From Thermoleophilia bacterium (GTDB taxonomy: Bacteria; Actinomycetota; Thermoleophilia; Gaiellales; SKUG01), in assembly GCA_025964555.1 (NCBI GenBank), contig JAOPYQ010000031.1:1-64000 (forward strand): DNA of 64,000 nt, given 5' to 3'. Within the stretch, counting starts at the first letter, position 1; each line of letters begins with the position of its first letter. A model generated the notes under the pieces. The model was not told where the DNA came from, searched no databases, and was given only the letters and a program-made list of their open reading frames with translations. The position numbers and the translations under genes were made by a program. This document shows positions 1,224 through 46,925 of this stretch, piece after piece.

Positions 1224-3722
1224 ATGGGGCCGCCCACGCCACCTCGACATCCTCGACGCCTGCCCGCTCGTGTCATCGCGGCGATCCTCTGCCTGCTCAC
1301 GGCGACCGGGGCAGCGACGCTGGGATCCGCGAACGGGGCAAGCTCCGGCACCGTGGTCAGCGCACAGGTCCCCAGCGCGGTGATGCTGACGACCGGCTGC
1401 TCCGCAGGCATCTCCCACGAATTCGGGAACGTGCTGCCGAACTCGCCGACGACGACCTCGACCACGACGCCATGCACGATGACTTTCCAGTCGAGCAACG
1501 ACAGCGCGCAGCTGCGGATCGGCCAGAAGGATGGCGGCCTCGGCGCGAATGCGATGGGACTGTCGTCGCCGGCGTTCGTGGATGCCACCTACGACCAGGA
1601 TCACCTGACCGACGTCGATCAACACGACACGAACAACGGGTGGGCCGTCGGTCGCGACGGAATGCTGCTGCAGACCACCAACGGCTCGACGTGGACCGAT
1701 CGGAGCGCAGGCGTCGCGGCGTTCCTGGTGGGGCACTGGATGGAGGCGGTGGACGTCGTCGACGGTGCGCCCGCGACGGCGTTCATCGGTGGCAACAGCT
1801 CCCGGCTCGTGCGCATCGATGCAGCGAACACCGGCGCGCCGACGTATGCCGACCTGACCGCGCGACTGAACTGGGGCTCCGACGGCGTGGAATCGATCCT
1901 CGCCGTGTCAGCCTCGGAGCTCATCGTCATCGGCTACAACGGACGCGTCGCGCGCAGCACCAACGCGAACCTCACGCCGGCGTCGGTCACGTTCGCGAAC
2001 TACACGCTCGGTGCGGCTGGCAACTTCGACATCGTTCGCGCCGCCGCCAACACGTACTACATCAGCGGTGACACCGACATCTGGAAGACCACGAACGGCG
2101 CGGTCAACAACGTTCCGGGTGACTGGGCGCCCATGACGGCCGGCCACGCACTCGGCATCGCCGCTTCGGACGCGACCCACATCTACGCAGCAGGGTGGAA
2201 CGGCAAGCTCGCGACCAGTGCCGGCGGCGCATTCACCTACCGGACGGTAGCCGCCCGAACGCAGTCCGCCCTCCGCAGCGCAGCGGCCGCGGGCAGCGCA
2301 GCCCCCGGCACGGCTTGGGTGGCCGGCGAGCACGGCGAGCTGTGGAAGACCACGTCCAGTGGGGTGACGTGGACACGGCAGGTGCTCCCGACGTCCAACC
2401 AGATCTTCAACATCTCGGCCGTCAGCGACCAGATCCTCGTGGCGGTGGGAGCAGACACGCTCATCATGCGAAGCGGAGACGGCGGCACCACCTGGACGAA
2501 GCAGTCGTACTCGGCGGGCGGCCTGAGCCAGCTCAACGCAGTCGACGTCGACCCGACCGACGGCCGCGTCGCCGTCGCCGTGGGCGGGAACGGGGGCACG
2601 GGCAGCGCGGCGCTCATCCGTCGGACCACGGACGGCGGCGCGAGCTGGACGACGATCGTTCCGCCGACCAGCGAGGCGCTGTTCGACGTCGCGTTCGCGT
2701 CGAGCACGGTCGTCTGGGCGGTCGGCGAGTCGGGCACGATCCTCAAGTCCGCAAATGCCGGCGTCACCTGGACTGTGCAGCCGTCCCCGACGGGACTTCG
2801 CCTGGACGCCATCGCCGCGCGCAGCGAGGTCGAGCTGTGGGCCGTCGGCGAACAGGGTGTCGTCCTGTCCACGGCCAACGGCGGATCATCGTGGGTCGTG
2901 CGTCCCGCCGGAACATCGACGTGGCTGCAGGATGTCGTGGTGACGAGCACGGGCACGGTCGTGATCGCCGGCAACGACAGCGTCGTTCGCCGGTCCACGG
3001 ACGGTGGCACCGTCTGGAATGCCGCGACCGTTCCCGGGGCCGGAGGGCAGGTCCTGGCGCTGAGCGCAGCAACCGACACGACCATGTTCGCGGTGGAGGA
3101 CGTCTCCGAGGACATCTGGCGCAGCATTGACGGAGGCGTGAACTGGGCCGCCCTGAACGCGTCCACCAACGACAATCCCGTCGACGTGTCGGCGGTCGAT
3201 TCAGTCGTGTACAGCGTCGGGGCATGGGGTCGGTCGCAGCGCTCGGACGACTCGGGGGCGACGTGGAACAGCACCCGTGTGGCGTCCAATGGCGCGCTCT
3301 ATGGGATCGCGCTCGCGGACTCCCACACCGCCTACGCCGTCGGTGAGGGTGGCGCGATCCAGGTCGCCTCGCCGAACGGAAGCGTCAACGCGCTCGTGAA
3401 CAACTACGCGTTCGCTGGCTCGGACTGGGACACCGCGGCGTCGACCAGCATGTTCGGCGTGTGCATCCAGGACGTCACCGCCACGACCGCCATCGCGGCA
3501 GGCTGGACCGAGGACGCCGCGAACGTCGCCGGACGGTGCGAGGCGCTCGACACCGATCCCTGGGCGGCGATCCCGGCCACGCAGTCCAAGGTCGCGACCA
3601 CGTCTGGAGCGGGCGTCGTCGGGCGGGTCGACTTCGTCTGGGGATTCCGACCGAAGAATTCGCAGATCCCGGGGCGATACACGGCCGCCGTCGTGTTCGA
3701 GGCGCTGGCGCCGAGCACGTAG
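1224..3722 (+). CDS. Secreted Ycf48/BNR-repeat beta-propeller protein
   Basis: N-terminal signal-like hydrophobic segment; repeated Asp-box-like motifs (GGTTWTKQS, GGASWTTIV, AGVTWTVQ, GGTVWNAA, SGATWNST); RBS-like caggaag before ATG. Confidence 0.75.
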   Translation: MGPPTPPRHPRRLPARVIAAILCLLTATGAATLGSANGASSGTVVSAQVPSAVMLTTGCSAGISHEFGNVLPNSPTTTSTTTPCTMTFQSSNDSAQLRIGQKDGGLGANAMGLSSPAFVDATYDQDHLTDVDQHDTNNGWAVGRDGMLLQTTNGSTWTDRSAGVAAFLVGHWMEAVDVVDGAPATAFIGGNSSRLVRIDAANTGAPTYADLTARLNWGSDGVESILAVSASELIVIGYNGRVARSTNANLTPASVTFANYTLGAAGNFDIVRAAANTYYISGDTDIWKTTNGAVNNVPGDWAPMTAGHALGIAASDATHIYAAGWNGKLATSAGGAFTYRTVAARTQSALRSAAAAGSAAPGTAWVAGEHGELWKTTSSGVTWTRQVLPTSNQIFNISAVSDQILVAVGADTLIMRSGDGGTTWTKQSYSAGGLSQLNAVDVDPTDGRVAVAVGGNGGTGSAALIRRTTDGGASWTTIVPPTSEALFDVAFASSTVVWAVGESGTILKSANAGVTWTVQPSPTGLRLDAIAARSEVELWAVGEQGVVLSTANGGSSWVVRPAGTSTWLQDVVVTSTGTVVIAGNDSVVRRSTDGGTVWNAATVPGAGGQVLALSAATDTTMFAVEDVSEDIWRSIDGGVNWAALNASTNDNPVDVSAVDSVVYSVGAWGRSQRSDDSGATWNSTRVASNGALYGIALADSHTAYAVGEGGAIQVASPNGSVNALVNNYAFAGSDWDTAASTSMFGVCIQDVTATTAIAAGWTEDAANVAGRCEALDTDPWAAIPATQSKVATTSGAGVVGRVDFVWGFRPKNSQIPGRYTAAVVFEALAPST

Positions 3723-38314: not shown

Positions 38315-39037
38315 TCATGCCGCCCGTTGGCCTGTAGAACTTGTCGGCGAGCCGGGCCTGAACCCGAGTTCTGCCGCGTAATCGAACACTCGTGCAACGT
38401 AGGTCTGCGTCTCCTCGTACGGAGGCACGCCGCCGTACTGCGCAACTGCGTTGGGTCCTGCGTTGTAGCCCGCGACCACCTTCGTGACGTCGCCGTCGAA
38501 GCGGTCGAGCAGCTGGCGCAGGTACTTGGTGCCGCCGGCGATGTTCTGCCAGGGGTCGGTCGTGTCGGTGACGCCGAGGCCGCGCGCGGTGGCGGGCATG
38601 AGCTGCATGAGCCCGGTGGCGCCGGCGGGCGACTTCACGTCGGATCGGAAGGCGCTCTCGGCCCGTGAGACGGCGATGACGAGCTCGCGCGGCACGCCGA
38701 AGCGCTCCGATGCGGCGTCGACCATCTGCTTCATCTCGGGCGACCAGCCGTTGACCTTGCGCGGGGTCGGGAAGTTCGGAGCCTCGATCGAGGCGGACGG
38801 GCTGCCACCCGTGGCGCGCATGCGGGCGACCGGAACCTGGTTGGTTCCCGCCCCCCACTCGCTGCCCGGAACGGAATCGGAGGTGGAGACGATCTTGCTC
38901 GGACCCTCGGCGAAGCGGCTGCGTGCGGTGGCGAGCACCTGGTCGAAGCCCTCGGCACCGATGGTGCGGACGTTCGACGGCATGCCGAGCCGCTCGCGCA
39001 GCTCGCTCACCCGGCTGATGGCGTCGGCGTAGCTCAT
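38315..39037 (-). CDS. Lytic transglycosylase SLT (flagellar cluster)
   Basis: VPRELVIAVSRAESAFRSDVKSPAGATGLMQLMPATARGLGV...GYNAGPNAVAQYGGVPPYEETQTYV. Confidence 0.9.
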   Translation of the reverse strand: MSYADAISRVSELRERLGMPSNVRTIGAEGFDQVLATARSRFAEGPSKIVSTSDSVPGSEWGAGTNQVPVARMRATGGSPSASIEAPNFPTPRKVNGWSPEMKQMVDAASERFGVPRELVIAVSRAESAFRSDVKSPAGATGLMQLMPATARGLGVTDTTDPWQNIAGGTKYLRQLLDRFDGDVTKVVAGYNAGPNAVAQYGGVPPYEETQTYVARVFDYAAELGFRPGSPTSSTGQRAA

Positions 39038-39480
39038 GCCACTGCCCCCAGTCCGCGGGCGGCGCGCATCGTGGCGATCTCGTCGAGTTCGTTCTGCTCC
39101 TCGCGCTGGGCGGCGAGGCGCCAGGCCTCGCGCTGCTTGTCGTGGAGGCGATCGAGCGCCTCGCGTCGTGCGCGTGCATCGACCAGGCGGGTTCGCACGA
39201 GCTCGACGCCCTTGTCGAACTGCATGAGCTTGATGCCGAGGCTGAAGATCTGCTGGCGGTGCCAGGTGCCGTAGCGCGAGACGTGCGCCATCTCGGCGGC
39301 GGTGCGACCCGGCTCGCGAAGGTACGTGAAGAGGTCCTGCTCGGCGTCGCGCGATGCGATCAGGTCCTGGAGCACGGCGTTGCGCTCCCGCATGACACGG
39401 GCGAGCTCGACCTGCACGGCCTCTTCCTGCTGCTTGCGCAGCTTGCGGACGGCCTCCAGCTTGAATACGAAGCGTTGCAT
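39034..39480 (-). CDS. fliJ: Flagellar export chaperone FliJ
   Basis: MQRFVFKLEAVRKLRKQQEEAVQVELARVMRERNAVLQDL; coiled coil between fliI and fliK. Confidence 0.85.
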   Translation of the reverse strand: MQRFVFKLEAVRKLRKQQEEAVQVELARVMRERNAVLQDLIASRDAEQDLFTYLREPGRTAAEMAHVSRYGTWHRQQIFSLGIKLMQFDKGVELVRTRLVDARARREALDRLHDKQREAWRLAAQREEQNELDEIATMRAARGLGAVA

Positions 39481-39490
39481 CTCGGAACGC

Positions 39491-39548
39491 GCATCGGACC
39501 GTCGAAACACGTGCTTGAACCTGCCAGAGCGAGCACGGCGCATTGCAA
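39491..39548 (-). promoter_or_regulatory. Flagellar-type promoter of fliJ: TTGCAA-N11-CGCTC-N7-TTCAAG-N15-TCCGATGC
   Basis: Direct match; 10 nt from octamer to ATG. Confidence 0.75.
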
Positions 39549-39676
39549 ACGCGACTCGCGTGATCGCACCACTCCTCCGTCATGTGTGTCCGTCTGGATT
39601 TGAGGGGTGAACCCGAACGCACGCACATGTCTTGGTCGTCTGCGATCGGTCGAGGCTTCTCCAATCGGTTCAGGCT

Positions 39677-39717
39677 TCTCGCGCGCGCGTGCGCGCTCGT
39701 GCGCGCGCGCGCGAGAG
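39677..39717. repeat. Alternating CG inverted repeat
   Basis: TTCTCGCGCGCGCGTGCGCGCTCGTGCGCGCGCGCGCGAGA. Confidence 0.9.
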
Positions 39718-39774
39718 GTAACGATCGTGACGGGGCGCGGTCGAGAACCGATGCGGCTCCTCGAACCCACGTGT

Positions 39775-39862
39775 GACCACGGTTCGCGAGGTCGCATCGA
39801 GTGACGCGATGCAGCGGTGCGACAGCACTCGTCGAACCGGCGCAGGACCACGGTTCGCGAGG
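39775..39862. repeat. 17-bp direct repeat GACCACGGTTCGCGAGG (39775-39791 and 39846-39862)
   Basis: Exact repeat in the fliJ/40079 intergenic region. Confidence 0.9.
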
Positions 39863-39933
39863 AAACGTCGCGTCGGACGGGTGCTTCGCGGGGCGCGAGC
39901 GCACGGAAAGCACGTCGCGACGTGGGTCGGCCG

Positions 39934-39948
39934 TAACTTAGGTAGTTC
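39934..39948 (+). promoter_or_regulatory. 15-bp motif TAACTTAGGTAGTTC upstream of 40079 gene
   Basis: Exact match to 9823-9837. Confidence 0.55.
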
Positions 39949-40078
39949 GTCCTAGTACCGAGGGCCGCGACCGGTCGTACAACCGTGTCATGGCGGCATG
40001 CCGACCGCCTGTCCCGTGCATCGGGAGCCGTTCGCCGACGGTGATGCACGAGACGACTTGCTTTGGGGGAAACACGCC

Positions 40079-43000
40079 ATGAGCGTCTCATCTACGCCGA
40101 CCACGTCGAACGCCGCCGCATCGGACCGCCTCTCGCGGGCCATCTCCGCTGCGAAGCCATCGACGCCCGCTGCCGCCGCACCGTCGCCAGCGACGAAGCC
40201 GTCCGGCGCGAAGGCGGCTCCCGATGCCGCCGCGCCGCTCACGCCCGAGGACCTGGTCGCTCCGGCGTCGCGCACCACGACGAGCTCCTCGTCGCGCGCC
40301 ATCTCGGCGACGGGCACCTCCTCCACGCCGATCCTCGACGCCATCCGCGCGGCGGCGGCAACGAAGTCCACGACGGGCGCCGGCTCCACCACCGGCACCG
40401 GCCGCGGCGCGAAGGCAGCACCCGAGTCGGCGGCCGCTGGCGCATCCCAGGTGATGGGCGCCGGCCAGCCCGGCACGGTCGCCGCAGCAGCTCCCGACTC
40501 CGCGCCCGAGCCGATCCCGACCGGCTCCGACACGGGCGGCGACCCGGCGCTCGCGACAGATCCCACGGTGATGCCCGAGCGCACCGTCCAGCCGATCGCG
40601 GGCACGGGCGCATGGACCACGGAATGGCAGCGTCGCTTCGAGAAGCTCCAGCTCGCACCCGCTGACGTGGCGTTCCTCGCACAGGCCAACTACTCGGACG
40701 CCGAGCTCACCGACATCGCGAACCAGCTCGGCGAGGTGGACGTGCTCGATCCCGCTGCCGCCAACCAGCAGATCGAGGGGCCCACGCCCAACGTCGACGC
40801 CGGCAGCGTGTCGTCCGCCGATGGTCCACTTCCGGAGGACGTCGTCCCCCAGGGCCAGCCTGGCTCGGCGACCGGGAGCGCATGGACCCCCCAGTGGGAG
40901 CAGCGCTTCGGCGACGTGATGACGCGCATGGGCATGTCGGAGACCGAGATCGCCGCGCAGCTCAAGGGCGTCCAGTCGCAGCCGACCACTGAGGCGCAGC
41001 TGTCCGAGGCGTACCGCCAGATGGAGCAGTCGATCGGAGCGTTCTCACCCGAGTGGCGCGACAAGTTCACGAAGGTGATGACCGACCTCAAGACCCCGAA
41101 GGCGGAGCAGGAGCAGGTCCTGCAGCAGCTCGCCGGGAGCGGCATGGACGAGTCCAAGCTGACCGAGGCGTACACGCAGATGCAGAACTCGCTGCCGGCG
41201 TGGAACACCGAGTGGGAAGACAAGTTCAAGTCCCTCGCGATCCCCGATGAGATGCTCAAGCAGCTCAAGGATTCCGGGGCACCGAAGGCCGCGCTCGAGG
41301 CGCAGTTCAAGCAGCTCGTCGACACGAAGATGAAGTACAGGGACGACGGTCGACTCGAGAAGCTCGAGGACGCCGATGCCTCCAACGAGGAGAAGTGGGG
41401 CGTCATGCTCCAGAACACCGAGGGCAAGGACTTCGACAAGGTCGTCGAGCAGATCCCGTCCGCCCACGTGCCGATGTGGAAGCGCGCGCTCAGCTTCGGC
41501 GTCAACCTCATCCCGGGCGTGTACGCGCTGCAGTACATCACCGGCAAGGACTGGGTCACGAGCGAGAAGATCGACCGCTCCAACCCGCTCAACATCGTCG
41601 GCGCCGTTGCCTCTGGCTTCGCCGGGTTCACCGCGGTCCGCAGCGCCGTGCAGGGCATCCAGGGGCTGAGCGCCGCAAGCCGCGCGGCGACCGCCACGAT
41701 GCAGGCCGCGAACGCGAGCAAGGGCATCACCGGCCTGGCGGCATCGGTCGAGTCGCTCGGATCGGCATCGGCGCTCAGCCGCGGCTCGTTCCAGGCGATC
41801 GAGGCTGCTGGTCTCGTCTCGAAGTTCGAGAAGGGCCTCAAGTTCACCGACTACCTCAAGAGCGCGGTGCCGCTCGTCAATCGCTTCGGCGAGGCGGGTC
41901 GCCTGTCGTCGGTCGGTCGCGGCTACTTCCAGGGCATGCAGCTCGCGGCCGGTGCCGCGTCGCTCAAGGCGCTCGAGGGTGGCAAGGTCGGCATCGACGC
42001 CGCCACCAGGTCCACCGTGCTCGGCGAGCTCAAGCAGGGCCGCTCGATCCAGGATGCGATGACGGCCGCCGGCCGCTCCAGCGGCACTGGTGGCGGCTAC
42101 GCCATCAAGGCGCAGGATGTGATTCGCGACTCCTCGCGCTACGGCTTCCTGCAGGGTGGCGCCGGCAAGCTCGCCGAGGGCAACAAGCTCATGCGTGGCA
42201 GCGGCAACTTCCGCTTCAGTCCGTTCAAGAACAGCGCAGCGATCGGCACGACCAACACCGAAGGCGTGTTCGCGCTCGGCCGCAACGTCAACTTCGGCAC
42301 GAACGGTGGTCTCGCACAGGGGCTCGGCGCCATCAAGGGTGCCAACAGCGTGCAGAACGCGGGGCTCTACGCCCAGGCGGCGCAGCGCGCCACCGGTGCG
42401 AACCAGCTCATGAACGCCGGCAACGCGCAGCGCATGGCAGGGCTCAACATCGCCGACGACGTGCAGCGCATCGAGACGATGACCAAGACCGCCGAATGGG
42501 CGGGCAAGCTCGGCGTCACCGGGGGCAGCAAGTTCCGTACGCTGCTCCAGCTCGGCGGCTCCAACCGCACCGCCGCCCGCGTGGCCGGCATGGTCGAGAA
42601 CGGCGGCAACCAGGGCTACCGCGCAGCGCGCATGACGCTCGACACCGCGCAGCGCTTCGGCAACTTCGTCGCAACGCCGCTCGTGGCAGGTGCCGCGTTC
42701 GGCATGACCGGCAAGCAGATGCAGCCGCTGTGGGAGTACTGGAAGAACCGCGACGAGATCCACGCGGAAGAGCAGCAGCAGGCAGGCGTGGCCGACCAGG
42801 AGGCGAAGGACCTCGAGCGCCTCTACGCCGAGCAGCAGGCGGGCGGTGGCACGCCGACCGGCCAGCCGAACCCGGCGGGCGGCGCCGCTCCGGAAGGTGG
42901 CAATGCGCAGGTGCAGGTGCTGGGGGCATCGCCCTCGGGTGGCCAGTACGTGCTCGACCCGAGCGTCGGACTGATCCTCGACACCGCGACCGGCGACCTC

Positions 43001-43267
43001 ATCGATCCGAACACGCAGCAGCTCGTCGGCAACATGAACCAGATGGCGAACGGCGTCGCGGATTCCATGAACGCCAACCCCGCAGCGAACGCGCAGTCGG
43101 GTCCGACAGCGACGACCGGCGCAGGTGGCGAGGCCGGCGTGTTCGTCGACCCGCAGTCCGGCATGTACGTCGATCCGCAGACCGGTCTCAAGGCCGATCC
43201 GAAGACCGGCCAGGTCTACGACGCCCAGAACAACGTCGTCGGCAACATCAACCAGCCGGCCGCGTAG
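40079..43267 (+). CDS. Large ORFan with four W-F repeats; candidate non-Sec exported protein
   Basis: Repeats AWTTEWQRRFEKLQL, AWTPQWEQRFGDVMT, AFSPEWRDKFTKVMT, AWNTEWEDKFKSLAI; C-terminal YVDPQTGLKADPKTGQVYDAQ; no N-terminal signal peptide evident. Confidence 0.8.
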   Translation: MSVSSTPTTSNAAASDRLSRAISAAKPSTPAAAAPSPATKPSGAKAAPDAAAPLTPEDLVAPASRTTTSSSSRAISATGTSSTPILDAIRAAAATKSTTGAGSTTGTGRGAKAAPESAAAGASQVMGAGQPGTVAAAAPDSAPEPIPTGSDTGGDPALATDPTVMPERTVQPIAGTGAWTTEWQRRFEKLQLAPADVAFLAQANYSDAELTDIANQLGEVDVLDPAAANQQIEGPTPNVDAGSVSSADGPLPEDVVPQGQPGSATGSAWTPQWEQRFGDVMTRMGMSETEIAAQLKGVQSQPTTEAQLSEAYRQMEQSIGAFSPEWRDKFTKVMTDLKTPKAEQEQVLQQLAGSGMDESKLTEAYTQMQNSLPAWNTEWEDKFKSLAIPDEMLKQLKDSGAPKAALEAQFKQLVDTKMKYRDDGRLEKLEDADASNEEKWGVMLQNTEGKDFDKVVEQIPSAHVPMWKRALSFGVNLIPGVYALQYITGKDWVTSEKIDRSNPLNIVGAVASGFAGFTAVRSAVQGIQGLSAASRAATATMQAANASKGITGLAASVESLGSASALSRGSFQAIEAAGLVSKFEKGLKFTDYLKSAVPLVNRFGEAGRLSSVGRGYFQGMQLAAGAASLKALEGGKVGIDAATRSTVLGELKQGRSIQDAMTAAGRSSGTGGGYAIKAQDVIRDSSRYGFLQGGAGKLAEGNKLMRGSGNFRFSPFKNSAAIGTTNTEGVFALGRNVNFGTNGGLAQGLGAIKGANSVQNAGLYAQAAQRATGANQLMNAGNAQRMAGLNIADDVQRIETMTKTAEWAGKLGVTGGSKFRTLLQLGGSNRTAARVAGMVENGGNQGYRAARMTLDTAQRFGNFVATPLVAGAAFGMTGKQMQPLWEYWKNRDEIHAEEQQQAGVADQEAKDLERLYAEQQAGGGTPTGQPNPAGGAAPEGGNAQVQVLGASPSGGQYVLDPSVGLILDTATGDLIDPNTQQLVGNMNQMANGVADSMNANPAANAQSGPTATTGAGGEAGVFVDPQSGMYVDPQTGLKADPKTGQVYDAQNNVVGNINQPAA

Positions 43268-43379
43268 GCAGCGCGCGACGGCCGCCGACCTGAACGCGGC
43301 TGCAACGCCAGCGGCCGTGGATCCGAAGTCCCGATAGGAGCCCGTGCGTGGGGATGCGCGTGGGACTGGAGGGACGACC

Positions 43380-44783
43380 ATGTCGACGATCGGCATTCGA
43401 GGAGGCGGTTACGCGCCTCCCACAACTCAATCACCTGTGCAGCAGGTACCGACCACGCCCGCGCCAGCGCCATGGCCCGGACCGGTACCTACGCCGACGG
43501 ACCCGCCGGTCGATCCGACCTGGCCCGGGCCACCCGGCGCGCCGCCGCAGGACGTGCCGTTCCCACCGAATCAGGGTCCGACCGGACCCACCGGCCCGGA
43601 TGCGCCACCGCACCCGCCGACGCTTCCGCCGACGCAGGGACCGACCGGCCCGGATGCGCCGCCGAATCCGCCGACCTTCCCGCCGAGCGGTCCGGACGGG
43701 CCCCCGCCTGGCCCGACCACGCCGCCGCCTGACCCGACCACGCCGCCGCCCGGACCGACCACGCCGCCGCCCGGACCCGGTCCGATCGAGCCGCCGCCCG
43801 GACCTGGACCGGTGGATCCGCCGCAGCCGCCGACCGATCCCACCGAGCCGCCTCCGGTCGACGAGGGATTCAACTGGAAGCCATGGCTCATCGGAGCTGG
43901 CGTGGTGACCGCCGGCGTGCTCGGCGCGCTCGCCATCCACAGCGGCGTCAAGAACGTCCACGCCCTCCAGGCAACCGAGAACGCGTTCGCGTCGGGCACC
44001 ATGCATCAGGGCGGCCTGCAGGCGATCAACGACGCGAAGCTCGGCGCGACCTTCGCGAACGGCATCGGCTTCGGTGACTATGCACGCGTTGCGCTGCCGG
44101 GTGTCAATCGCGTCGGCCTCGGTGGTCGACTGACATCCGTCGCGCGCGGCCACGTGCAGCACAACGAGCTGCTCGCTGCGAGCACCGCGCTGCGGCACGT
44201 CGCGACCGGCGATGGCGTCGCCGTGTTCGAGCCGCTTCGGAAGTCCGTGTTCTCGGACCTGCAGGCAGGGCGCGGCATGGAAGCGATCCTCGGCGACCTG
44301 GATCGATCCGCCTCCGGCGCTCGCCCCGTGTTCGACAACAAGCAGCTGCTGCGCTACTGGAACCAGCAGTCGATCGTCGAGCTGGGCCGCACCTCGGGGG
44401 GCGACCACATCGCCTCCGCGGCACGCGTCACGGTGCCGAATCTCGGCCTCGAGGGCCGCGAGATCGTCGAGACCGGTGGCACAGCCACGATCAACCAGCT
44501 CGTCGCGGGCCGCAATGCCAGCCTCCGCGCGAAGGGCTTGGCCAGCGGCATCGGATCAGTGCAGGCCGCGAACGTGTCCACGCTCCCGCCGGCGCTGCAG
44601 AAGGCAGCGATCGAGGCGTCGGGCGTCGATCCCAGGCTCGTCGAGACGGCCGGGCTGCGCCCCGCCTACGTGCAGCGCTGGCAGGAGCGAGTTGCCGCGG
44701 GCGTCGCGGCCGGGCCCTCCTGGCAGGAGCGCGTCGGTGACGGTGTCGCCGAGCTCGCCGACGTCGCGATCACGGCGAGCTAG
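43380..44783 (+). CDS. Pro-rich ORFan paralogous to the middle of the 40079 protein
   Basis: Pro/Gly-rich N-terminus, TM segment WLIGAGVVTAGVLGALAI, then FANGIGFGDYARVALPGVNRVGLGGRLTSVARGHVQ resembling FEKGLKFTDYLKSAVPLVNRFGEAGRLSSVGRGYFQ. Confidence 0.8.
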   Translation: MSTIGIRGGGYAPPTTQSPVQQVPTTPAPAPWPGPVPTPTDPPVDPTWPGPPGAPPQDVPFPPNQGPTGPTGPDAPPHPPTLPPTQGPTGPDAPPNPPTFPPSGPDGPPPGPTTPPPDPTTPPPGPTTPPPGPGPIEPPPGPGPVDPPQPPTDPTEPPPVDEGFNWKPWLIGAGVVTAGVLGALAIHSGVKNVHALQATENAFASGTMHQGGLQAINDAKLGATFANGIGFGDYARVALPGVNRVGLGGRLTSVARGHVQHNELLAASTALRHVATGDGVAVFEPLRKSVFSDLQAGRGMEAILGDLDRSASGARPVFDNKQLLRYWNQQSIVELGRTSGGDHIASAARVTVPNLGLEGREIVETGGTATINQLVAGRNASLRAKGLASGIGSVQAANVSTLPPALQKAAIEASGVDPRLVETAGLRPAYVQRWQERVAAGVAAGPSWQERVGDGVAELADVAITAS

Positions 44784-45427
44784 GACTGCTGGGCAAGCAG
44801 CTGCTCGTAGTGCTTCGAGCCGAAGTTGATCCAGCGATCCACGCCGACGATGGCGACGAGGTCGGGGTGCGACTTCTGTGCGGTCACGCGCAGCGCGCCG
44901 TGCTTGGCGTCGTCCATCGCGTCCGGCACGAGACGCCCGGGTCGACTCGAGCCCGTCTGCTCCCAGATGCGCTCGGGACCGTAGACGGTGCCGTGCTCGG
45001 GATCGATCGGCAGGTTCGTCACCGGCGGCTCGTCGTCGCCGTAGTGCTGGCCGGGGCCGTACCCCATCACCGGCACGACGATCCACTCGTTCTTGCCGTG
45101 TCCGCGAAGGATCGCGGCTGCGCTCATCTCGGGCATGTCGATGTCGTCGAGCGACGCCTCCACGCGCGCCTTGCCGACCGCGTCGGCGAACGAGCCGACG
45201 ATGCGGTTGCCGACGTGGTTGTAGTCACCGATGCGCGCCGACACCGTCATGTGTTCGTCGCCCTTCACGTACTCCACCACCGCGACTTCGCGATCGAGCC
45301 AGACGCGTTCCTTGAGGTTGCCGCCGTAGCGCGGCGTGTCCACCAGCGGCACCGTCGCGGGGAACGCGGCCGGGCGGACGGGATGCGGGAAGTTCACGGG
45401 AGCGGGCATGCGAACACGGTACGCCAC
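44780..45427 (-). CDS. Hypothetical protein
   Basis: Coherent ORF convergent with 43380 gene; no family recognised. Confidence 0.55.
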   Translation of the reverse strand: MAYRVRMPAPVNFPHPVRPAAFPATVPLVDTPRYGGNLKERVWLDREVAVVEYVKGDEHMTVSARIGDYNHVGNRIVGSFADAVGKARVEASLDDIDMPEMSAAAILRGHGKNEWIVVPVMGYGPGQHYGDDEPPVTNLPIDPEHGTVYGPERIWEQTGSSRPGRLVPDAMDDAKHGALRVTAQKSHPDLVAIVGVDRWINFGSKHYEQLLAQQS

Positions 45428-45526: not shown

Positions 45527-46867
45527 CTAGAAGAAGACGGGCGGCGCGTCACCCATGAGCAGCTCCAGCTGCGCACGTGCCTCGGGCGCGGTCGTGCGCT
45601 CGGTCATCGACTGCTGCAGGAACTGGTCGATGTCGGGCTTCTTCGCGATCGCGTAGTCGACCTTCGGGTCCGAGCCGATCGCGTACGCGCCGATCGAGAC
45701 GAGGTCCTCGCGGTCGCGGTACACGGCGAGCGTCTCGCGGGCGAGGCCGGCCGCGCGGATCTGCTCGGGCGTCAGCAGCTCCGACTGCAGCCGACTGATC
45801 GAGGCGAGCACGTCGATCGCGGGATAGTGGTTGCGGTGCGCGAGCTCGCGCGAGAGGACGACGTGCCCGTCGAGGATGCCGCGCACCGCGTCGGCAATCG
45901 GCTCGTTCATGTCGTCACCTTCGACGAGCACCGTGTAGAGCCCGGTGATCGAGCCCTTGTCGGAGGTCCCGGCGCGCTCGAGCAGGCGTGGCAGCATCGC
46001 GAACACGCTCGGCGTGAATCCGCGCGTGGCGGGCGGCTCGCCGATCGCGAGTCCGATCTCGCGCTGCGCCATCGCGAAGCGAGTGACGCTGTCCATCATG
46101 AGCAGCACGTCCTTGCCGCGGTCGCGGAAGTACTCGGCGATCGAGGTGGCGGCGAACGCAGCGCCGATGCGCTTGACGGCGCTCTCGTTGGAGGCAGCGA
46201 CCACGACGACGGAGCGTCGCATGCCCTCCTCCCCCAGGTCGCGCTCGATGAACTCGAGCACCTCGCGACCGCGCTCGCCGATGAGCGCGATGACGTTGAC
46301 GTCCGCGTTCGTGGCGCGCGCGATCATCCCCATGAGCGAGCTCTTGCCGACACCCGACCCGGCGAACACGCCGAGGCGCTGGCCGCGCCCACACGGGATC
46401 ATCGAATCCATCGCGCGCACGCCCAGGTCGAGCTGCGTGTCGATGCGTCGCCGCGTCATCGGCGGCGGCGGATCGGCGTGCAGCGACACGCGCGCCTCCG
46501 CATCGAGCGGCCCCTTGCCGTCGATCGGCTCGCCGGTCGCATCGACGACGCGACCGAGCAGCTCCACGCCCACAGCCACGCGCACCGGATGGCCGGTCGC
46601 CACGACCTCGTTGCCCGGCGCGACGCCGCGCATCTCCCCGAGCGGCATGAGCAGCGTGCGTCCCTCGCGGAAGCCGACGACCTCGGCCGGGATCGGCTCG
46701 TCGTGGCGCGACACGTGCACGTGACACAGCTCGCCGACCTGCGCCTCGGGCCCCTGCGCCTCGATCACCAGGCCGATGACCTGCACCACGCGACCGTTGA
46801 GTCGGTACGGGTCGACGCGTCCGAGTCGGTCGTGGTAGGTCGAGAGGTCGAGCGGCGGGTCGGCCAT
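45527..46867 (-). CDS. fliI: Flagellum-specific ATPase FliI
   Basis: GRGQRLGVFAGSGVGKSSLMGMIARATNADVNVIALIGERGREVLEFIE; DSVTRFAMAQREIGLAIGEPPATRGFTPSVF. Confidence 0.96.
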   Translation of the reverse strand: MADPPLDLSTYHDRLGRVDPYRLNGRVVQVIGLVIEAQGPEAQVGELCHVHVSRHDEPIPAEVVGFREGRTLLMPLGEMRGVAPGNEVVATGHPVRVAVGVELLGRVVDATGEPIDGKGPLDAEARVSLHADPPPPMTRRRIDTQLDLGVRAMDSMIPCGRGQRLGVFAGSGVGKSSLMGMIARATNADVNVIALIGERGREVLEFIERDLGEEGMRRSVVVVAASNESAVKRIGAAFAATSIAEYFRDRGKDVLLMMDSVTRFAMAQREIGLAIGEPPATRGFTPSVFAMLPRLLERAGTSDKGSITGLYTVLVEGDDMNEPIADAVRGILDGHVVLSRELAHRNHYPAIDVLASISRLQSELLTPEQIRAAGLARETLAVYRDREDLVSIGAYAIGSDPKVDYAIAKKPDIDQFLQQSMTERTTAPEARAQLELLMGDAPPVFF

Positions 46868-46925
46868 GCCCGGAGCATGTACCCCATCCGGCCGATTCCG
46901 GCGCATCCGGGCGGGTCGACGTCGC

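What the first reader, a model, noticed from the sequence alone, without database searches (positions are those of the whole stretch)
40079..44783. Tandem paralogous ORFans without Sec signals inside the fli cluster
Seen: the 40079 protein segment FEKGLKFTDYLKSAVPLVNRFGEAGRLSSVGRGYFQGMQLAAGAASLKAL...RSTVLGELKQGRSIQDAM aligns by eye to FANGIGFGDYARVALPGVNRVGLGGRLTSVARGHVQHNELLAASTALRHV...RKSVFSDLQAGRGMEAIL in the 43380 protein. Their N-termini differ: four about 50-75-aa W-x(3)-F repeats versus a Pro/Gly-rich collagen-like stretch. They lie on the strand opposite to fliJ and fliI and separate the two. Inference: fast-evolving surface or effector-like proteins possibly exported by the flagellar apparatus.
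Basis: partly seen in the sequence, partly recalled or inferred. Interest (0 to 1): 0.75.

Follow-up and report, generated by a model that had tools for sequence, protein, structure and literature searches.

The report
Flagellar-cluster orphan proteins with export-linked cousins
Two related, otherwise unknown proteins sit between two flagellar export genes in an uncultured actinobacterium; their cousins share promoters with needle-like proteins linked to a second flagellum-type export machine, so the family probably travels through, or works with, such machines, although no export has been shown.

Summary
ORF A (40079-43267) and ORF B (43380-44783) are tandem paralogs (38% over 89 aa, E=9e-14) on the strand opposite fliJ and fliI, which they separate in a canonical motility cluster. 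They are not true ORFans: 11 relatives exist, all in the same GTDB family (5 of 129 genomes of the order), and A and/or B orthologs sit at the fliJ/fliI position in all three other genus members. No Sec signal by hydropathy; the A core weakly resembles the Pre-toxin TG domain.

New: this family carries a second flagellum-type export operon with its own sigma factor. In one genome a 74-aa needle/inner-rod-like (SctF/SctI) gene lies beside it. Paralogs X1 and X2 lie elsewhere but share one promoter motif with rod-like genes and signal-peptide-less M4 peptidases. This gives the 'type III export' idea indirect support. Against it: A and B lack that motif and the flagellin promoter, and export is untested. 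Verdict: new lineage-specific family, probably type III-associated (about 0.5). The second system with needle-like proteins in a presumed monoderm is the more surprising lead.

The parts
40079..43267 (+). ORF A, 1062 aa: Ala/Ser/Thr/Pro-rich N-terminus, four W/F helical modules, Pre-toxin-TG-like hydrophobic region, domain shared with B, C-terminal tail
   Evidence: orthologs beside fliJ in G001 (L010) and G003 (L045)
40613..41350 (+). four W-x2-W-x3-F-type modules of A (residues about 179-425), modelled as helical bundles
   Evidence: AF2 single-sequence model of residues 165-440, pLDDT about 75-87 over the modules, no fold match
41477..41632 (+). Pre-toxin-TG-like stretch 'YITGKDWVTSEKIDRSNPLNIVGAVASG'; related motif in X1, X2 and G004 members
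   Evidence: PF14449 15.2 bits here, 18.2 bits in the G001 ortholog, both below the cut-off of 23.5; motif listing
41720..42445 (+). domain of A shared with B (residues about 548-789)
43145..43222 (+). OCRE-like DPxTG repeats at the C-terminus of A; absent from the G001 ortholog
   Evidence: PF17780 26.4 bits, cut-off 24.7; alignment A4
43380..44783 (+). ORF B, 467 aa: Pro/Thr/Gly-rich N-terminus, one hydrophobic helix, domain shared with A
   Evidence: orthologs beside fliI in G003 (L012) and between fliJ and fliI in G002 (L013)
43881..43937 (+). hydrophobic helix of B (residues 168-186), conserved in B orthologs
43941..44693 (+). domain of B shared with A (residues 188-438)
44783..45427 (-). 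ORF C, 215-aa orphan between B and fliI, absent from the same place in G001-G003
   Evidence: coding G+C pattern; no family match; only chance hits
39034..39543 (-). fliJ (conserved start codon at 39480)
   Evidence: PF02050 E=1.6e-12; start from comparison with orthologs
45527..46906 (-). fliI, flagellar export ATPase
   Evidence: PF00006 E=3.8e-91 and PF18269 E=1.3e-22
39481..40078 (.). fliJ-A intergenic region; blocks conserved in G001 and G003 next to A; no match to either sigma-28-like motif

Best explanation
A and B belong to a lineage-specific family of large modular proteins that accompanies flagellum-type (type III) export machines in one GTDB family, probably of class Thermoleophilia. 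Most likely, step by step: they are made without a Sec signal (shown by hydropathy only); their disordered Ala/Ser/Thr/Pro-rich N-termini are taken by the export gate (inferred); they are exported through the flagellar apparatus, or held at its membrane side, where the hydrophobic TG-like region of A or the hydrophobic helix of B meets the membrane (inferred); the W/F helical modules and the Pro-rich stretch serve as spacers or binding arms (inferred). X1 and X2 would be the counterparts for the second export apparatus.
For: Position between fliJ and fliI: A+B here, A in G001, B in G002, A beside fliJ and B beside fliI in G003, while a named Thermoleophilia relative (L048) and others (L060, L071) have fliI-fliJ without insertion. 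The family is confined to f1 (5 of 129 genomes), as is the SctF/SctI-like protein; two FlhA clades occur within f1, each found in four or five of the five genomes. Paralogs X1/X2 share the motif TGNAACAAC-N13-GCGATAGA with rod-like genes and M4-peptidase genes (19 hits against 2 in the control; X1/X2 reached by 0 of 200 shuffles). The needle/rod-like proteins have T3SS rod or needle models among their best matches (T3SS_SctI E=0.00096 and 0.0053, PrgJ 0.012; T3SS_needle_F 0.0077) and one lies beside the second flhA-flhB-fliR-fliQ-fliP run in G003. No Sec-like N-terminus in any member.
Against: A/B promoters match neither the shared motif nor the flagellin promoter. X1/X2 lie beside transketolase genes, not beside the second apparatus. 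No sequence rule proves a type III signal. B's hydrophobic helix could simply anchor a cytoplasmic protein. All needle/rod matches are below curated cut-offs. The genomes are incomplete MAGs.
Confidence: 0.5

Rival explanations
1. A and B are not exported: they are membrane-associated accessory proteins of the flagellar base (assembly, ATPase or chaperone platform), which is why they sit between the genes for the export ATPase and its stalk.
For: Location between fliJ and fliI in four genomes; hydrophobic helix in B, hydrophobic TG region in A; promoters unlike those of the exported flagellins.
Against: Long disordered Pro/Ala/Thr-rich N-termini, fast divergence and one-sided presence (A without B in G001, B without A in G002) are unusual for a core assembly factor; X1/X2 share a promoter motif with rod-like genes.
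Confidence: 0.25
2. They are polymorphic-toxin-like effectors: a Pre-toxin-TG-like linker followed by a toxin-like domain, delivered to neighbouring cells.
For: PF14449 is the best Pfam match of the G001 ortholog (E=0.035), and the two best PF14449 hits in the five genomes are that ortholog and A itself; the motif recurs in X1/X2; the promoter motif of X1/X2 also precedes M4 peptidases without signal peptides.
Against: Below the curated cut-off; no immunity gene in G001-G003, where A or B abuts fliI directly; the part behind the TG-like stretch is conserved between A orthologs (about 40% to residue 886), not swapped as polymorphic toxin tips are.
Confidence: 0.12
3. They are unrelated passengers that inserted between fliI and fliJ in the genus ancestor; the link to export machines is coincidence.
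For: The flagellar clusters of this group hold other insertions (ORF C, the 677-aa protein at 46926-48959, an HD-GYP-type gene in G003); promoters unlike flagellar ones.
Against: Kept at the same place in four species, and the paralogs share a promoter motif with needle/rod-like genes.
Confidence: 0.13

Closest known systems
Non-flagellar proteins exported by flagellar type III apparatus (known in several flagellated bacteria)
   Same: Encoded with flagellar genes, no Sec-like N-terminus
   Different: No sequence relation found to any described family; export not shown; unknown to Pfam, NCBIfam, PHROGs and PADLOC apart from a short OCRE-like repeat
Pre-toxin TG domain (PF14449) of polymorphic toxins
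   Same: TG/SG motif with acidic and basic neighbours in a hydrophobic stretch
   Different: Below cut-off; no toxin domain or immunity gene recognised
Non-flagellar type III secretion systems (injectisomes), for the second apparatus
   Same: SctN, SctR, SctT, SctU, SctV, SctQ-type core and a SctF/SctI-like protein
   Different: Keeps flgB, flgC, fliE, which the definition of Abby and Rocha excludes; known cases are confined to diderms in their survey (PMC3459982), while this host is presumed monoderm

Membership tests
Flagellar type III export substrate | export depends on FlhA/FliI | not testable with these tools
   uncultured MAG; no proteomics
Flagellar type III export substrate | no Sec signal peptide, disordered N-terminus | tested here: met
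   hydropathy and composition of the N-terminus; no SignalP available
Flagellar type III export substrate | late-gene (sigma-28) promoter as for flagellins (usual, not obligatory) | tested here: not met
   A and B upstream regions score like shuffles
Pre-toxin TG polymorphic toxin | PF14449 above gathering score | tested here: not met
   18.2 and 15.2 bits against 23.5
Pre-toxin TG polymorphic toxin | adjacent immunity gene | tested here: not met
   A or B ends within a few bases of fliI in G001, G002, G003
Non-flagellar T3SS (second apparatus) | lacks flgB, flgC and fliE | tested here: not met
   PF00460 and PF02049 matches in the operon
Non-flagellar T3SS (second apparatus) | has a secretin | not tested
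Non-flagellar T3SS (second apparatus) | has needle subunit SctF / inner rod SctI | tested here: inconclusive
   best matches to SctI/PrgJ/SctF models, all below cut-off; linked to flhA2 in G003

The most novel reading that the evidence does not exclude
This actinobacterial family has turned a second flagellum into a needle-bearing protein delivery machine (an injectisome-like system in a monoderm), with its own sigma factor, M4-peptidase effectors and X1/X2 as translocon-like or effector proteins; A and B are the copies of that protein family adopted by the ordinary flagellum.
Probability: 0.28. Interest if true: 0.92.

Novelty: new variant of a known kind. Interest (0 to 1): 0.62.

Why it matters
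If right, a protein family without recognised domains marks what actinobacterial flagellum-type machines export or need besides flagella, and leads to a second export apparatus with needle-like proteins in a lineage where, in the survey read here, only flagella were known. That would bear directly on how flagella turn into secretion machines, and it is testable by proteomics.

Tried and rejected
AF2 of the A/B core: pLDDT 33.5, unusable. Foldseek with the model of the W/F modules: nothing at E<=0.001 in PDB or BFVD. PDB sequence search with the core: nothing. Rfam near A: nothing. A hairpin-like 5' leader was seen by eye in A upstream regions but not tested further. PF14449 in 150 genomes of the phylum: none, so no profile-profile test. 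A first mismatch search for the motif used a wrong spacing; repeated correctly. Apparent relatives of ORF C downstream of X1 are frames overlapping transaldolase, so chance. Plasmids and phages: no relative of the A core. First genome-contig scan with A: nothing.

Full report
Observation. The window holds a canonical motility cluster on the - strand: MotB, MotA, FlgE, FlgD, FliK, an SLT transglycosylase, FliJ, FliI, FliH, FliG, FliF. The similarity is real: blastp E=9e-14, 38% over 89 residues, and 66.2 bits against a best of 24.6 in 500 shuffles. It extends more weakly over some 240 residues when relatives are included. A has four W/F modules (residues 179, 269, 322, 375); strict motif hits are 3 against 0.12 in shuffles. 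A single-sequence AF2 model makes the modules short-helix bundles at pLDDT about 75-87, without a fold match. B begins with a Pro/Thr/Gly-rich stretch followed by one hydrophobic helix. None of the family members has a Sec-like hydrophobic N-terminus (hydropathy, not SignalP).

Distribution. The proteins are not lone ORFans. Profile searches of 129 genomes of the order find relatives in exactly five, all of GTDB family f1: the window's own genome, the three other held species of the genus (G001-G003), and one of a sister genus (G004). No match in plasmids or phages. FliI is closest (70%) to a Thermoleophilia MAG, SKUG01000233.1, so the class is probably Thermoleophilia; this is inference. The place is conserved: G001 has fliJ-A-fliI (L010), G002 fliJ-B-fliI (L013), G003 A beside fliJ (L045) and B beside fliI (L012). 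L048, L060 and L071 have fliI and fliJ side by side without insertion. ORF C (44783-45427) is present only here.

Paralogs elsewhere. G001-G003 carry further members, X1 and X2, outside the flagellar cluster beside transketolase and other pentose-phosphate genes (L011, L043, L009); A matches X1 of G003 at E=1e-30. A, its G001 ortholog, X1, X2 and the G004 members share a stretch around 'GKDxxTxEKID' that resembles the Pre-toxin TG domain: PF14449 is the best Pfam hit of the G001 ortholog, at 14.5-18.2 bits, below the cut-off of 23.5. I treat it as a resemblance, not membership.

Promoters. Upstream of X1 and X2 I found a bipartite motif, TG[AC]AACAAC-N13-GCGATAGA. An exact short form occurs 10 times in the five genomes and never reversed; with up to two mismatches the full form occurs 19 times against 2. 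Besides X1/X2 it precedes small proteins of 142-163 aa, signal-peptide-less M4 peptidases (PF02868 E=8e-20 and 2e-16; one in the own genome, contig C20) and a divergent pair in G002:C121. Flagellin genes use a different motif of the usual sigma-28 kind, CTCAAG-N15-GCCGATGA. A and B match neither.

Needle/rod-like proteins. The small proteins sit with a 74-aa protein whose best or near-best matches are type III rod or needle models: T3SS_SctI E=0.00096 and 0.0053, PrgJ 0.012, needle 0.082, PF09392 0.0077, PrgJ in PDB 0.028. All are below curated cut-offs, though they come from three species and separate libraries; unrelated matches of like strength (CENP-H, a designed repeat protein) show how low such scores are. 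It too is confined to f1 (the window's own genome gives only a weak partial hit).

Second export apparatus. All five f1 genomes hold a second FlhA clade apart from the flagellar one. In G002 (contig C170, L187) it belongs to an operon with flgB, flgC, fliE, fliI, a fliJ-like gene, fliM, fliN, fliP, fliR, flhB, flhA and a sigma-28-like factor; no recognisable FliG or Mot gene was seen there. In G003 (C441, L194) the needle-like gene lies about 3 kb from flhA2. By the definition of Abby and Rocha (PMC3459982) this is not a non-flagellar T3SS, because flgB, flgC and fliE are kept; a secretin was not searched for. That the second sigma reads the motif is inference.

Interpretation. The family keeps company with type III export machines at two levels: position (A/B in the flagellar cluster) and a shared promoter motif (X1/X2 with rod-like genes). 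Together with the missing Sec signal this favours export substrates or machine-associated proteins, at about 0.5. The main holes are the unmatched promoters of A/B, the distance of X1/X2 from the second operon, sub-threshold rod matches, incomplete MAGs, and no experiment. The literature held here gave no report of such a system in Actinobacteria; the held library lacks most subscription journals.

Noticed in passing
G002:C170 = L187 (185-19964); G003:C441 = L194; G000:C15 = L184: Second flagellum-type export operon with its own sigma-28-like factor in this GTDB family; second FlhA clade present in all five genomes.
   Followed up: partly
L150:4742-4960 +, L151:2420-2647 -, L154:32-253 +, G003:C441:2566-2787 +: 74-aa SctF/SctI-like (T3SS needle or inner-rod) protein, beside the second flhA in G003; confined to the family.
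   Followed up: partly
L153:1410-2600 +, L155:9643-10593 +, L204 (G000:C20 about 67 kb): M4-type metallopeptidases without signal peptide behind the same promoter motif; candidate exported enzymes.
   Followed up: partly
L188:9140-10204 -, L189:8700-9962 -, G000:C16:42832-43434: Proteins holding only the FlhA C-terminal domain, one with a zinc-ribbon-like N-terminus.
   Followed up: no
L152 (G002:C121) around 3537-3612: Divergent gene pair with a copy of the shared promoter motif on each side; both products carry hydrophobic stretches.
   Followed up: no
window 46926-48959 -: 677-aa protein with a signal-peptide-like start and repeat-like sequence between fliI and fliH; no Pfam match.
   Followed up: no
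L012 3447-4928 - and 5013-5900 +: In G003 an HD-GYP-type protein and an open frame with HEAT-like repeats lie between fliI and fliH.
   Followed up: no
window 39481-40078; L010, L045: Leader of A holds a block (CCGT-TCGCCG-ACGG with flanking complementary arms) that looks like a conserved hairpin in three species; no Rfam match in the window.
   Followed up: partly
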